Part shown: one piece after another, positions 9,431-14,042 of the stretch
Numbering within the stretch: the stretch's first letter is position 1
Layout of the letters: every line of letters begins with the position of its first letter
Source of the DNA: Pseudomonadota bacterium
GTDB taxonomy: Bacteria; Pseudomonadota; Alphaproteobacteria; Rhizobiales; Hyphomicrobiaceae
Direction of reading: 5' to 3'
NCBI GenBank assembly: GCA_023430845.1
Contig: JAEYYJ010000070.1
Span: forward strand, 1 to 14,042
DNA length: 14,042 nt
Position numbers and translations under genes: made by a program
Notes under the pieces: model-generated
The model's database searches: none
What the model saw: only the letters and a program-made list of their open reading frames with translations
What the model was told of the DNA's origin: nothing

Positions 9431-10153
9431 ATGTCGGCCAACGCGCGCGTCCACTGGACCAAAGGCAAACTCGTCGGCGCGAAGCCGCCGCTGCGACCGA
9501 GACACGTTGGCCCACAGCAAGTACTCAATGGACCGTGCGACCATCCGGCAAAAGAAGTCCGGCAGGCCGTGCGGTTCGAGTTGGCGGACCAGACGCGGAT
9601 GGCCATCGACGAATACTTGAGGTTGACCCGTCGAAAGCCCGGGCAGTCCCTGTTCGCGAGTCGTGGCGATCGCGCCGGTCTGACCACGCGGCAACACGCG
9701 CGCCTCATGCACAAATGGGGGGCCGGCATCGATCTCGATCGTGCGAAGCTCCGCACACGCCCGCTGCGCAGAACGAAGGCGGTGCTGATCTACCGGCGAA
9801 AGGGGAATCTTCGCGCAGTTCAGCTTCTGCTTGGCCACTCGAAGATCAGAAGCATCGTTAGGTACCTGGGCATCGAAGCTGATGCCGCGATCAAGATCGC
9901 GGAGAAGATCGAGATCTGTGTGCCTGACGCATTACCTCCGATTCCGGACGTGCCGGCGGCACGCCTGCATCGCCGGCTTCGATGCGCCGGCGCTGCCGCG
10001 CCTGCGACGGGGCGATTGGCAGCGTGCTACGTCTCCCGCTCCCTGTTTCGCTGCGGCCCGTCGCTTAATGGCGAAGCGTGGAAGCGGTTCGCTCTCTCGC
10101 TGGCTCCTCACGGCTACACTCCAATGAGTCTCCACGCATTAGCTAGACGCTGA
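9431..10153 (+). pseudogene. Decayed tyrosine recombinase (integrase) of the tRNA-linked island
   Basis: The start MSANARVHWTKGKLVGAKPP and residues ~47-162 (VRFELADQTRM to IAEKIEI, ending at ~9916) match the small tyrosine integrases common in Hyphomicrobiales. The region carrying catalytic Arg I is deleted. Between 9503 and 9570 a piece, AHSKYSMDRATIRQKKSGRP, lies in a different frame, so two compensating frameshifts flank it. In the HxLR box the histidine is replaced (R110-P-L-R113). The GH pair (135-136) and Tyr145 of VRYLG survive. The open frame runs ~78 codons past the usual end to 10153 with arginine- and alanine-rich sequence, probably non-native. Such enzymes insert elements at tRNA 3' ends, and this one sits 100 bases from the 3' end of tRNA-Arg. 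It should be inactive. Confidence 0.8.
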
Positions 10154-10242: not shown

Positions 10243-10270
10243 TTGATTTCATTGGCGCGCGGGGAAGGAT
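10243..10270 (+). repeat. Attachment-site-like direct repeat, copy 2 (overlaps tRNA-Arg 3' end)
   Basis: This is the partner of 2969-2996 (24 of 28 identical). Bases 10253-10270 are the tRNA 3' end and T-arm side, and 10243-10252 lie just downstream of the tRNA. The integrase remnant is on the same side as the tRNA 3' end, as expected at an attR/attL junction. Confidence 0.5.
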
Positions 10271-10329
10271 TCGAACCCACGACCCCCAGATTCGTAGTCT
10301 GGTGCTCTATCCAACTGAGCTACCCGCGC
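10253..10329 (-). tRNA. tRNA-Arg (anticodon ACG)
   Basis: The 77-base cloverleaf is complete. The acceptor GCGCGGG pairs with CCCGCGC, followed by discriminator G and an encoded CCA. The D-arm GCTC...GAGC is present. The anticodon stem CCAGA/TCTGG encloses loop CTACGAA with anticodon ACG, and the T-loop is TTCGAAT. The T-stem has one T-T mismatch and one G-T pair. It reads CGU and, after A34-to-inosine editing, CGC/CGA. Its 3' end is a likely integration target of the neighbouring island. Confidence 0.96.
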
Positions 10330-11341: not shown

Positions 11342-11566
11342 TCATTCGGCCCTCACGGGCTCGGATCCATTCGCTCGCGCGACGGCGATGGCCGCCTCGA
11401 GCGTCGTGCGGTCGCCGATGTGGTTCATCAGCAGCAATATGAGGCGAACATTCAGACGCGCGCTCTCCGCCTCGGAGAGGCCCTCGTGAGCCGCCATCAG
11501 GAGAGCATAGACGTCATCGCCGTGCGTGCCGAGATTCCAGTCCGTCGTCAGAGGGGAACCTGTCAT
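11342..11566 (-). CDS. DUF2783 family protein
   Basis: This 74-residue cytoplasmic protein fits the DUF2783 pattern: DDVYALLMAAHEGLSEAESA, then RLNVRLILLLMNHIGDR, then a short helix. The family is small, helical and of unknown function. As I recall it, the gene commonly sits beside flavin-dependent aromatic hydroxylases, as here. Its ATG overlaps the monooxygenase stop by four bases, so the two are probably translated together and may interact. It ends 19 bases before the SDR gene. Confidence 0.85.
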   Translation of the reverse strand: MTGSPLTTDWNLGTHGDDVYALLMAAHEGLSEAESARLNVRLILLLMNHIGDRTTLEAAIAVARANGSEPVRAE

Positions 11567-13170
11567 GCGTCGAGCCTCCCGTTGGCGCGAGCGAGCGCGC
11601 TGGCCAGATCCGCAGTCGTCGGATCCTTCAGGCGCGCGGCCACGTGCTGATCCGGCCGGATGAGATAGACGACACCCGATGCGAGGCCGTAGCGGGCGGC
11701 GAGAAGGCCGTGCGAATCCACGAGATCACCTGTTTCCTCGACCTTAAGCCGACGCATGCCGGGCGGCGTAGGCGGTAGGTTTTCGGAACCCAGCGCGATA
11801 AAGCTGCCACCCAGATGGTCAAGCAGCCAGCTATCGCGGCCATCAGCGGTCCGGATCGGTGCGTCGAGGCACGCCGCACCAGGAACCATTGCGCCGCCGA
11901 TGCCGGTCTCATCCGGCGAACCGAGCGGCAAGCCCGCCAGCGAGCAGGGCCGCGACAGGCGCCCCGAATTCACGAGCTGGCGCGCAAATGGATGCGCGCC
12001 GGCAAGCGCCAGCACCTCGTCGCGAAAGAGGCGTTCCATGGGCGACTTCGGTGTCATGAAGCTCGTCGCGCGTGCGGAATTGAGGATGTTCTCGTCGGCT
12101 CCGTGAATGCGCTCCAGGTTGTATGTCTCGAGCAGAGCGGGGGGCGCCTCCCCCTTCACCACGGCCGCGAGCTTCCAGCAGAGATTGTCCACGTCCTGGA
12201 TGCCGCCATTGCCGCCACGTGCGCCGAACGGCGAGACGATGTGCGCGCTGTCACCGGCGAAGATCACGCGGCCATGGACGAAGCGCTCGAGCCGTCGGCA
12301 CTGGAAGCTGTAGACGGAAATCCAATCCACCTCGAAGGGTCGCTCGCCAACCATCGCCTTGATGCGCGGGATGACCCGCTCCGGCCGGCGCTCCAACTCG
12401 GGGTCGGCGTCGGGACCGAGCTGCAGGTCGATCCGGTAGATGTTGTCGGGCTGCTTATGCAGGAGCGCCGACTGGCCATCATGGAAGGGTGGCTCGAACC
12501 AGAACCAGCGCTCGGAGGGAAACTCGGCGGCCATCTCGACGTCGGTTATGAGAAAGCGCTCCTCGAACGCGCGGCCGACAAAGTCCAGGCCCAGACTGCG
12601 GCGCACCGTACTGCGGACGCCGTCGCACGCCACGACATAGTCGGCCGAGAGGCGATAAGCGCCCTCCGGTGTCTCGATATCGAGCCAAGCGTGGTCATGC
12701 TCCTGCCCCGCGCCACTGACGCGGCTCTTGAAGCGCAGTTCGATGAGATCCGGGAAATCGCGCGCGCGTTCTACCAAGTACTCTTCGACGTAATATTGCT
12801 GGAGATTGATGAAGGCTGGGCGCTTGTGCCCGGTTTCGGGGAGCAGGTCGAAGGCATAGACCTCGCGATCACGGTGAAAGAGGCGGCCCACCTTCCAGGT
12901 CACGCCCTTCGCGACCATGCGATCGCCGACGCCGAGCCGATCGAAAATCTCGAGCGTGCGTTTCGACCAGCAGATGGCACGCGAACCCGTCGAAACGACA
13001 TCGCTCTCGTCAAGCACGACCGAAGCGATACCGTGGAGTGCGAGGTCAATCGCGGCGGCGAGGCCGACGGGCCCAGCGCCGACGATCGCCACAGGCCAGC
13101 GTCGTCCGGCGCGGCCATCCAGCTCGGGTGGCCGCACGAAGGGAAAAACCGGTGAGCGATAGCGTGGCAT
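11563..13170 (-). CDS. FAD-dependent monooxygenase (aromatic hydroxylase family, MhpA/PheA-like)
   Basis: This 535-residue class A flavoprotein hydroxylase uses NAD(P)H and O2 to hydroxylate, most often, a phenolic ring. The Rossmann motif GAGPVG is at 31-36 with an acidic residue near 54-55. The DG motif ACDGVRS (181-187) and the GD motif RVIFAGDSAHIVSPFGARGG (301-320) are intact, followed by GGIQDVDNLCWKL. The C-terminal ~150 residues form the thioredoxin-like tail of PheA/MhpA-type enzymes. The ATG at 13170 has a weak GGGGA upstream, and its leader contains the 158-bp hairpin array. Likely substrates are 3-hydroxyphenylpropionate-like or other hydroxyaromatics, but none can be chosen by eye. 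Confidence 0.92.
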   Translation of the reverse strand: MPRYRSPVFPFVRPPELDGRAGRRWPVAIVGAGPVGLAAAIDLALHGIASVVLDESDVVSTGSRAICWSKRTLEIFDRLGVGDRMVAKGVTWKVGRLFHRDREVYAFDLLPETGHKRPAFINLQQYYVEEYLVERARDFPDLIELRFKSRVSGAGQEHDHAWLDIETPEGAYRLSADYVVACDGVRSTVRRSLGLDFVGRAFEERFLITDVEMAAEFPSERWFWFEPPFHDGQSALLHKQPDNIYRIDLQLGPDADPELERRPERVIPRIKAMVGERPFEVDWISVYSFQCRRLERFVHGRVIFAGDSAHIVSPFGARGGNGGIQDVDNLCWKLAAVVKGEAPPALLETYNLERIHGADENILNSARATSFMTPKSPMERLFRDEVLALAGAHPFARQLVNSGRLSRPCSLAGLPLGSPDETGIGGAMVPGAACLDAPIRTADGRDSWLLDHLGGSFIALGSENLPPTPPGMRRLKVEETGDLVDSHGLLAARYGLASGVVYLIRPDQHVAARLKDPTTADLASALARANGRLDA

Positions 13171-13185
13171 CTTGACGATCCCCGG

Positions 13186-13343
13186 TCGCTTCGCGAGCGG
13201 GGACTAGTCCCCGCACCCCTAGCGGGAGGGACACCCTCCCGCACCCACCCGCTTTTATGACTTAGTCCATAAAAGACGGGGGAGCGGGGGTGTCCCCCGC
13301 GCGGGATGTGGGGTCCGCGGCCCCACTCGCGTCGAAGACGCGA
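13186..13343. repeat. Compound inverted repeat: seven consecutive hairpins with mirrored arms
   Basis: A central hairpin (CTTTTATG 13252-13259 / CATAAAAG 13268-13275) is flanked by three hairpins on each side. Left: 13222-13242 (9-bp stem), 13197-13214 (perfect 18-base palindrome around CTAG) and 13186-13196 (TCGC-TTC-GCGA). Right: 13284-13300 (7-bp stem), 13308-13326 (6-bp stem) and 13327-13343 (7-bp stem, GAA loop). Read outward from the centre, both arms give the same order: a stem with GTGT at its apex, a GGGG/CCCC stem, then a TCGC stem with GAA loop. Stem sequences differ between arms, but pairing is kept. It fills the space between the hydrolase stop (13346-13344) and the monooxygenase start. 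It may be a REP/BIME-like or MITE-like repeat, or a transcript-stabilising or terminating structure. Confidence 0.8.
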
Positions 13344-14042
13344 CTAACCCTGCAGCGCCTTCCACATTGCCTGATCGCGCTCCGCCGTCCAGATGCGTGG
13401 CGTGTCGATGCCGAGCGCTTCATCGTACGCGCGTGCCACGTTGAAAGGCAGACAATGCTCGTAGATGGCGTAGCTCGCAAACTTCGGATCGCACTCGGCG
13501 CGGCAGGCATCCCACGCTTCCTTCAATGAACCACCACGCCGAGCAACCTGCGCGACCGGACGATAGGTCGAGCGCACGAAGTCGGCGGTGAGATCGAGCG
13601 CTTCGTTGACCTGCTTCGTGCCGACGAGCGCACCACCACGGCCCGGCGCGATCGAGTCCGGCGCATAAGCGCGGATGGCTTCGAGCGTGGCAGGCCAGTC
13701 ATTGAAATGCGCGTCGCCGCAATAGCAGGCGGAGTGATACTCGACGATGTCGCCGGTCATCATGACGTTGGCGTCCGGCACGAAGGCGACGATGTCACCC
13801 GCCGTATGCGCACGCCCGAGGAACATGAGTTCCACCGGCCGCTTGCCGAGGTCCACGGTCATGCGCTGCTTGAAGGTCATGCTCGGCCACGTCAGGCCCG
13901 GAATGGACTCATGCCCCTGGAAGAGGCGCGGAAAGCGGCCGAACTCGGAATCCCAGTCCTCCTGTCCCCGCTCGTGGATCATGGCATGGCACTTCTCGGA
14001 GGCGATGATCTCGCTTGCCTCGAAGGCTGAGGCACCAAGCAC
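13344..14042 (-). CDS. Metallo-beta-lactamase-fold hydrolase, partial (N-terminus beyond window)
   Basis: The last 232 residues are present and the frame is open to the window edge, so the HxHxDH metal motif would lie outside. In window numbering, His79 in LGRAHTAGD and Asp98 in MMTGDIVEY are the second half of the metal site. The place of the last metal histidine reads PGRGG (133-137) rather than the usual PGHG. Members of this superfamily hydrolyse thioesters, lactones or related bonds; no substrate can be named. It is the first visible gene of the minus-strand cluster, 173 bases upstream of the monooxygenase, with the hairpin array between. Confidence 0.85.
   Translation of the reverse strand: MLGASAFEASEIIASEKCHAMIHERGQEDWDSEFGRFPRLFQGHESIPGLTWPSMTFKQRMTVDLGKRPVELMFLGRAHTAGDIVAFVPDANVMMTGDIVEYHSACYCGDAHFNDWPATLEAIRAYAPDSIAPGRGGALVGTKQVNEALDLTADFVRSTYRPVAQVARRGGSLKEAWDACRAECDPKFASYAIYEHCLPFNVARAYDEALGIDTPRIWTAERDQAMWKALQG

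What the first reader, a model, noticed from the sequence alone, without database searches (positions are those of the whole stretch)
13186..13343. Seven-hairpin mirrored array with covarying stems
Three hairpins on each side of a central one appear in the same order when read outward, yet their stem sequences differ while staying paired (a CTAG-centred GGGG stem on the left, a CCGCGG-centred GGGG stem on the right). This pattern suggests selection on structure or spread as a palindromic mobile repeat. It lies in the probable 5' leader of the monooxygenase gene.
Basis: seen in the sequence. Interest (0 to 1): 0.7.

Follow-up and report, generated by a model that had tools for sequence, protein, structure and literature searches.

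The report
Mirrored hairpin repeat after stop codons
The seven-hairpin array is one copy of a palindromic DNA repeat that is scattered through the genomes of Hyphomicrobium-like bacteria, often starting right behind a gene's stop codon; it resembles the REP/BIME repeats of other bacteria and is not a one-off switch for the neighbouring gene.

Summary
13186-13343 holds seven hairpins built as two inverted, abutting three-hairpin "halves" around a fused centre (0 of 200 shuffles fold as well; both halves match one covariance model). It is not unique: Hyphomicrobium sp. CS1BSMeth3 and MAG bin.191 hold it at the orthologous place plus dozens of dispersed copies. The 5 genomes searched in that genus, 32 of 103 in the GTDB family and, weakly, 3 of 248 others drawn from the order carry it. 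Stems covary strongly (106 halves: 98.0% of 2151 cells paired, 241 two-sided changes, 48 in shuffles) with few G-U wobbles on the gene-sense strand, unlike an RNA-selected stem. 49 of 82 arrays lie between convergent genes; 45 of 94 outer edges lie within 10 nt of a stop codon. Here it separates an MBL-fold hydrolase gene from a monooxygenase gene, 1-46 nt apart in 20 of 44 loci without it. Best reading: a new Hyphomicrobiaceae family of REP/BIME-like mosaic repeats. No link to RAYT-type transposase was found; how it spreads is unknown.

The parts
13185..13344 (.). whole element: two inverted three-hairpin halves, tail to tail (a 'closed' array with no insert)
   Evidence: R1 matches 13264-13344(-) and 13185-13263(+) abut; 172-175 bp MBL-monooxygenase gap in the window, L001 and L002, 1-568 bp in 44 other loci, where R1 finds nothing
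13264..13344 (-). half A (outer end at the MBL-fold gene's stop codon, inner end CCCCCGTCTTTTATGGACT)
   Evidence: R1 94.1 bits, E 1.4e-20 (it is one of the rows that built R1); aligned with 40 other A halves
13185..13263 (+). half B, diverged reverse complement of half A; outer end 14 nt from the monooxygenase ATG
   Evidence: R1 51.5 bits, E 4.2e-10; aligned with 39 other B halves
13186..13196 (.). hairpin 1 of half B, TCGC TTC GCGA
   Evidence: sequence
13197..13214 (.). hairpin 2 of half B, GCGGGGACTAGTCCCCGC
   Evidence: sequence; allele varies among copies
13222..13242 (.). hairpin 3 of half B, GCGGGAGGGACACCCTCCCGC
   Evidence: I13
13252..13275 (.). central hairpin, the fused inner ends of the two halves (CTTTTATG...CATAAAAG)
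   Evidence: I3; with up to 6 mismatches found only at the three orthologous loci among the stretches scanned (window, L081, L082, L111-L190); elsewhere both inner ends exist with an insert between them
13284..13300 (.). hairpin 3 of half A, GCGGGGGTGTCCCCCGC
   Evidence: sequence
13308..13326 (.). hairpin 2 of half A, GTGGGGTCCGCGGCCCCAC
   Evidence: sequence; compensated in L001 and L002
13327..13343 (.). hairpin 1 of half A, TCGCGTCGAAGACGCGA, directly behind the TAG stop (13344-13346)
   Evidence: sequence
13344..14042 (-). MBL-fold hydrolase gene (3' part; the frame reaches the window end)
   Evidence: no Pfam hit; NCBIfam: the 25 of 29 families shown are all below their cut-offs; best PDB match 8d2z_A, E 3e-74
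11563..13170 (-). FAD-dependent monooxygenase gene, downstream of the element
   Evidence: PF01494 E 4.7e-66; NF006002 above its cut-off

Best explanation
The array is one copy of a dispersed palindromic repeat of Hyphomicrobiaceae, of the REP/BIME kind. Its unit is an ~80-nt half made of three hairpins in fixed order plus a CCCCCGTCTTTTATGGACT-like tail. Halves occur singly, tail to tail ('closed', with 0 to ~300 bp between them, the longer inserts being other palindromic repeats; 0 in the window) or head to head ('open'). Shown: dispersal, unit structure, covariation, excess directly behind stop codons, presence/absence and rearrangement between related genomes. Inferred: the element entered the short gap between the MBL-fold gene and the monooxygenase gene in an ancestor of the three species and has stayed there. 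In the transcript it would act mainly as a hairpin block in the 3'UTR of the MBL gene (protection from 3' exonucleases, partial block to readthrough into the monooxygenase gene). Also inferred: the arms are kept complementary largely at DNA level, by exchange of whole hairpins among copies or template-switch correction inside the palindrome, not by point-by-point RNA selection. The enzyme that spreads it, if any, is unknown.
For: Copies: BLAST matches 48 (G001), 52 (G002), 55 (G005), 12 (G006), 19 (G007) at E<=0.001 with at most 40 candidates scored per genome. One half in 80 kb of four control stretches not chosen for copies (L150, L188-L190). Family 32 of 103 at E<=1e-3, order 3 of 248 others at E<=1e-4 with fewer candidates scored. 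Covariation: A2 97.4% of 861 cells paired, 71 two-sided changes, 17.2 in shuffles; A4 98.0% of 2151, 241, 48.3. Position: 49 convergent, 27 tandem, 5 divergent, 1 edge of 82 arrays, against 69/230/62 (convergent/tandem/divergent) for all adjacent gene pairs in the same stretches, the arrays' own pairs included. With at least 40 nt of slack, 28 of 49 outer edges lie within 10 nt of a stop, 3.7 expected, largest of 2000 random placements 11. Presence/absence: where G002 has an array (locus L124), G007 has two convergent genes that overlap at their stops; where G001 has one (L156), G007 has a gap of about 10 nt. Locus history: 20 of 44 loci without the element have a gap of 1-46 nt and none of 78 loci L003-L080 matches R1.
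Against: No transposase association: Y1_Tnp (PF01797) in 14 of 103 family genomes, 5 of them among the 32 with the element (4.3 expected by chance), none in the five genomes of the genus. No target-site duplication: mean edge repeat 2.55 nt, 2.25 in shuffles, 75 of 1000 as high. 49 of 94 outer edges are not within 10 nt of a stop. Polarity of the presence/absence cases is not fixed, so some may be deletions. Any RNA role is inferred; no expression data were available.
Confidence: 0.8

Rival explanations
1. A unique cis-acting RNA (leader, riboswitch or attenuator) of the monooxygenase gene.
For: The element is kept at the same place in three species with compensated stems. A GGGGA Shine-Dalgarno-like stretch just outside the element is predicted to be largely paired (unpaired probability 0.30 window, 0.04 L001, 0.02 L002 in a 90-nt fold), and for the -15 to -6 region L001 (0.14) and L002 (0.24) lie below the lower quartile (0.31) of 74 relatives.
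Against: Dozens of copies at other loci; anchoring to stops, not starts; no Rfam family at gathering score; absent from all 78 more distant loci. For the -15 to -6 region the window itself (0.40) is at the relatives' median (0.415).
Confidence: 0.04
2. A classical REP/REPIN family mobilised by a RAYT (Y1_Tnp) transposase.
For: Palindromic, dispersed, inverted pairs, 3' of genes, as REPs (PMC3733652).
Against: No Y1_Tnp in G001-G004 nor G005-G007; no association across 103 genomes. No conserved GTAG tag.
Confidence: 0.08
3. A family of structured 3'UTR elements (terminators or mRNA stabilisers) selected at RNA level and multiplied for that use.
For: Gene-sense polarity and position behind stop codons; a T-rich stretch behind hairpin 3; at locus L140, G007 keeps only a hairpin-1-like hairpin followed by TTTT. 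On the antisense strand 6.6% of minimum-energy pairs are G-U, near the tRNA level.
Against: The scan found no intrinsic terminator in 12900-13600. On the gene-sense strand wobble pairs are rare (G-U 7, A-C 30 of 2151 cells; 1.7% of minimum-energy pairs against 8.1% in 10 tRNAs and 8.7% in mononucleotide shuffles), the opposite of what RNA selection on that strand predicts.
Confidence: 0.3
4. A MITE of an ordinary DDE-transposase insertion sequence.
For: Closed arrays have long inverted halves with a variable inside.
Against: No target-site duplication; 50 of 82 arrays show a single half, though a weak partner may have been missed; both tail-to-tail and head-to-head pairs occur. A parent insertion sequence was not searched for.
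Confidence: 0.07
5. Chance clustering of G+C-rich palindromes.
For: The genomes are G+C rich.
Against: Folding z-scores, the reversed-pattern control 0 in all five genomes against 55 matches, covariation.
Confidence: 0.01

Closest known systems
REP / BIME repeats (bacterial interspersed mosaic elements); GTAG- and CGTC-tagged REPs (PMC3733652: abstract, passages and section 15 seen)
   Same: Dispersed palindromic units, often in inverted pairs, mainly between convergent or co-directional genes. Most convergent REPs of the two families measured there lie <20 bp from both 3' ends. CGTC REPs, found mostly in alphaproteobacteria, apparently lack a dedicated transposase.
   Different: The unit is ~80 nt with three hairpins, not one 20-40 bp palindrome; no conserved GTAG tag; CGTC occurs in the tail but is not followed within the half by an 8-9 bp stem; hairpin 2 comes in several compensated alleles.
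Br-REP1 / Br-REP2 of Bradyrhizobium (PMC5082802: passages and section 15 seen)
   Same: Alphaproteobacterial; Br-REP1 lies among three palindromes that form three stem-loops in overlapping 3'UTRs of convergent genes; abundance differs strongly between species.
   Different: Different consensus (CCGGAATCTCGAGATTCCGG); reported from Bradyrhizobium and Rhodopseudomonas; no mirrored halves described in that section.
RIME, Rhizobium-specific intergenic mosaic elements (title only, in a reference list)
   Same: Named as mosaic intergenic repeats of rhizobia.
   Different: Sequence not compared; R1 matched only 3 of 248 other genomes drawn from the order.
E. coli REPs near stop codons (Liang 2015, seen only as quoted in PMC12306157 passages)
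   Same: Part of the REPs lie within 15 nt of a stop codon, where they can stall ribosomes: nearly half by Liang, 446 of 4,072 (about 11%) by the quoting paper.
   Different: Gammaproteobacterial single palindromes; ribosome stalling untested here.

Membership tests
REP/BIME-like dispersed palindromic repeat (broad sense) | many dispersed copies per genome | tested here: met
   48-55 BLAST matches at E<=0.001 in three genomes, 12 and 19 in two more; at most 40 candidates scored
REP/BIME-like dispersed palindromic repeat (broad sense) | extragenic, mainly 3' of genes, convergent or co-directional neighbours | tested here: met
   49 convergent and 27 tandem of 82 arrays; 45 of 94 outer edges within 10 nt of a stop; genes by my own caller
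REP/BIME-like dispersed palindromic repeat (broad sense) | units in alternating orientation, mosaic with other repeats | tested here: met
   23 closed, 9 open, 0 same-direction neighbouring pairs; other palindromes inside
GTAG-tagged REP with RAYT | unpaired GTAG at one end of a 20-40 bp palindrome | tested here: not met
   no conserved GTAG in the consensus of A2 or A3
GTAG-tagged REP with RAYT | RAYT (Y1_Tnp) gene in the genome | tested here: not met
   0 of 5 genomes of the genus
CGTC-tagged REP | CGTC followed by an 8-9 bp stem with loop of 4-5 | tested here: not met
   CGTC in the tail is followed by TTTTATGGA, unpaired within the half; in the window it is followed by the central stem, whose loop has 8 nt
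MITE | target-site duplication | tested here: not met
   22 closed arrays, no significant excess of edge repeats
MITE | parent insertion sequence with the same ends | not tested
   no transposase search beyond PF01797
structured cis-regulatory RNA (Rfam) | match to a known family | tested here: not met
   only the tRNA in the window passes gathering scores
RIME | sequence match to RIME elements | not tested
   no RIME sequence fetched

The most novel reading that the evidence does not exclude
A repeat family that seats its outer hairpin, in gene-sense polarity, directly behind stop codons, and whose strong stem covariation is produced at DNA level (exchange of whole hairpins between copies, or template-switch correction of each palindrome) without RNA selection. 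It would be a natural case in which covariation is not evidence for a functional RNA, together with a spreading route that prefers gene ends and does not use RAYT.
Probability: 0.3. Interest if true: 0.65.

Novelty: new variant of a known kind. Interest (0 to 1): 0.45.

Why it matters
It adds a large, well-structured REP/BIME-like family in Hyphomicrobium relatives, with a three-hairpin unit and no RAYT link, to a group of alphaproteobacterial repeats whose spreading route is an open question (PMC3733652, abstract). The family offers a test case for two general points: why such repeats sit at stop codons, and whether strong covariation with few wobbles can come from DNA-level palindrome upkeep. 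It also warns that repeats of this sort can pass covariation tests meant for RNA.

Tried and rejected
Operator idea: after the central hairpin looked unique to this locus and similar palindromes stand upstream of the monooxygenase in L006 and L012, so it was considered a regulator site. It was dropped because both inner ends occur throughout the family with an insert between them. RAYT link: not supported. Target-site duplication: not found. Intrinsic terminator and sigma-70 promoter scans: 0 and 0 in 12900-13600. Plasmid and phage records: 39 and 14 records with short partial matches, none covering 80% of the query. Shine-Dalgarno masking: predicted, stronger in L001 and L002 than in the window, not decisive. 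A pattern for one nested module returned nothing in 196 loci; I had typed a base that does not fit the module as printed, so that miss says nothing. A pattern for another nested module has no match in the window.

Rows dropped and limits. Of 124 BLAST rows 80 halves were kept for alignment (E<=1e-6, spanning most of a half, not overlapping a better one). A2 left out L114 and L120 (disturbed by insertions) and the control-stretch copy L190; A3 left out L131 and L165. Of 125 R1 matches 114 were used for position counts: left out were four from L001/L002 and seven weak ones (E 1.8e-4 to 6.8e-3), six of which overlap a better match. In one search, 79 of 82 arrays were used (3 without both neighbours or overlapping a called gene), 100 of 114 halves (those up to 90 nt). 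Gene calls come from my own simple caller, not an annotation; it tends to place starts too far inside (the monooxygenase by 78 nt), so starts were rechecked with every in-frame start codon: 1 of 94 outer edges then has one within 10 nt. G-U and A-C counts depend on the alignment: 7 and 30 on A4, 9 and 16 on A2. On the B halves RNAalifold gave another consensus, with U-G in 30 of 40 rows at one pair of a long-range helix that is not among the three hairpins, and G-U in 11 rows at a pair of hairpin 2 that is out of register in rows with a longer stem; I did not use it.

Full report
What is in the window. On the minus strand the window reads: end of an MBL-fold hydrolase gene (stop TAG at 13346-13344), a 173-nt gap, then the ATG (13170) of an FAD-dependent monooxygenase. 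The stretch folds far better than 200 dinucleotide-preserving shuffles as RNA (z -6.45) and as DNA (z -7.49). The array is two inverted halves. A covariance model built from 41 A-type halves, the window's own included (R1), matches 13264-13344 on the minus strand with 94.1 bits and, which is the real test, 13185-13263 on the plus strand with 51.5 bits, abutting. Each half has, from the outside in, a TCGC(G) hairpin, a GGGG-type hairpin, a hairpin with GGACACC at its tip, and a CCCCCGTCTTTTATGGACT-like tail. The central hairpin is the fusion of the two tails.

The same locus in relatives. No whole genome is held for the window. Among the close protein hits that bear a name, the nearest are Hyphomicrobiaceae and Hyphomicrobium. 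MAG bin.191 (L001, 92% identity) and Hyphomicrobium sp. CS1BSMeth3 (L002, 85%) carry the array at the same place. The stems differ but stay paired, for example GTGGGGCCGCGGACCCCAC, GCAGGGCTGCCGCCCTTGC and GTGGGGCCTTGGCCCCAC. Of 81 loci examined (window and L001-L080), 47 have an MBL-like C-terminus within 700 bp upstream: three with a 172-175 bp gap holding the array and 44 with gaps of 1-568 bp, 20 of them 1-46 bp. R1 has no match in any of the 78 loci L003-L080. So the element was probably added to a short gap between neighbouring genes in the lineage of the three species (inference).

Dispersed copies. The element as query found 62 places in G001 (bin.191) and 64 in G002 (CS1BSMeth3) at E<=10, a loose limit, and at E<=0.001 matches in the 5 genomes of the genus: G002 52, G005 55, G006 12, G001 48, G007 19 (at most 40 candidates scored per genome). 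A strict pattern for half A occurs 55 times in the five genomes (26, 19, 8, 1, 1) and its reversed control 0 times. R1 matches 32 of 103 genomes of the GTDB family at E<=1e-3 and, besides G002, 3 of 248 genomes drawn from the order at E<=1e-4, weakly. Both are lower bounds because only 45 and 18 candidates per genome were scored. One half was found in 80 kb of control stretches.

Mosaic anatomy. In 82 arrays, 50 show one half and 32 show two: 23 pairs tail to tail with -4 to 471 nt between them, 9 head to head, none in the same direction. Many of the longer inserts are other palindromic repeats (for instance CCCTCTCCCCG...CGGGGAGAGGG with TTAGGGTGAGGGG); in L168 the 471 nt contain a called gene. 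The window form with no insert is rare. Of 40 G002 arrays, 7 have both flanks matched in the fetched G001 stretches; there the array persists but with other hairpin alleles, other inserts, another half, or (L121 and L167) the opposite orientation. Three further loci were tested in related genomes. At the L124 locus G007 has the two convergent genes overlapping at their stops, with no array. At L156 it has only a gap of about 10 nt. At L140 it has a single hairpin followed by TTTT, G005 has a collapsed remnant, and G001 has one half with another module. This shows presence/absence and internal deletion; which state is older is not settled.

Position. Of 82 arrays, 49 lie between convergent genes, 27 between co-directional, 5 between divergent and 1 at a stretch edge; all adjacent gene pairs in the same stretches, theirs included, give 69, 230 and 62 (genes by my own caller). 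Of 94 array edges formed by the outer end of a half, 45 lie within 10 nt of a stop codon facing them and 0 within 10 nt of a called start; with every in-frame start codon allowed, 1. For arrays with at least 40 nt of free gap, 28 of 49 such edges lie within 10 nt of the stop; random placement in the same gap gives 3.7 on average and 11 at most in 2000 trials. Inner edges show no clear excess (5 of 42, 2.8 expected). The unit is therefore anchored and polar in many copies: gene, stop, hairpins 1-2-3, tail. The window fits for half A; its half B faces the monooxygenase start at 14 nt.

Covariation and what it means. On 41 A halves aligned by MAFFT, 97.4% of 861 cells pair and 71 cells have two-sided changes against 17.2 in shuffles; slid controls pair 37-58%. 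On 106 halves aligned to R1, the figures are 98.0% of 2151, 241 against 48.3. The second alignment is fitted to the structure. Yet one-sided changes are few: G-U 7 and A-C 30 of 2151, 9 and 16 on the first alignment. Ten tRNAs from the loci in hand have 13 G-U and 0 A-C of 208. Without any alignment, 1.7% of minimum-energy pairs of 100 halves are G-U on the gene-sense strand, 6.6% on the other strand, 8.1% in the tRNAs and 8.7% in mononucleotide shuffles. Hairpin 2 comes in a handful of common matched alleles with few hybrids, and at orthologous places 28 pairs differ on both sides and 9 on one, of 222 with letters (the trio comparisons are not independent). These counts are not corrected for shared descent. 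They fit hairpins that change as whole units, by exchange between copies or template-switch correction (a known process; starts of abstracts seen in the listing), better than RNA selection on the gene-sense strand. The higher wobble share of the antisense strand is unexplained.

What it does here. Nothing was measured. In the mRNA half A would form a hairpin block directly behind the MBL stop codon. By analogy with REPs this can protect the upstream mRNA, hold back readthrough, or stall ribosomes within 15 nt of a stop (PMC12306157 passages, quoting Liang 2015). The scan shows no intrinsic terminator. Predicted masking of the monooxygenase's ribosome-binding stretch is stronger in L001 and L002 than in most relatives but average in the window for the -15 to -6 region, so no claim is made.

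Comparison with known families. [quoted passage not shown] Br-REP1 of Bradyrhizobium lies among three palindromes in overlapping 3'UTRs (PMC5082802). The present unit differs in size, sequence, hairpin number and lack of a conserved tag next to a stem. Y1_Tnp shows no association: 14 of 103 genomes, 5 among the 32 with the element, none of the five in the genus. My searches of the held library (one search listed 15 of 392 papers) listed no paper whose title or abstract start is on such repeats in Hyphomicrobium; the library is partial.

Noticed in passing
window 9431-10153 (+) and 10253-10329 (-): A 240-aa phage-integrase-family protein lies next to a tRNA-Arg(acg) gene, as at the edge of an integrated element.
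   Followed up: no
L114, L120, L116, L143, L154, L156 (around position 2500): Hairpin 2 is interrupted by smaller palindromes (ATGCC...GGCAT type) or another module inside its loop: palindromes nested in palindromes.
   Followed up: partly
alignments A2, A3: The spacer behind hairpin 2 tends to change together with the hairpin-2 allele (ACCCC with GGGG, GCTCC with GAGG) although it is not part of the stem; unexplained.
   Followed up: partly
L197:1420-2130 (G007): At the L140 locus G007 has only GTCGCGCCAGAGGCGCGCGAC followed by TTTT, like a lone intrinsic terminator made of hairpin 1; possibly the seed or the remnant of an array.
   Followed up: no
L006 and L012, within 60 nt upstream of the monooxygenase: TTATGACC...GGTCATAA-like palindromes that look like regulator sites.
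   Followed up: no
G113, G160, G337: Weak R1 matches (E 6e-9 to 9e-5) in three genomes drawn from the order, possible distant relatives of the unit.
   Followed up: no
L007: A record titled Mycobacterium sp. KBS0706 has an alphaproteobacterial-type monooxygenase (70%) and upstream DNA very like Inquilinus limosus (L018); the name may be wrong.
   Followed up: no
L121 and L167; L119 and L187; L147 and L178: Orthologous gaps in G002 and G001 hold the element in opposite orientation (first pair) or hold different halves of it.
   Followed up: partly
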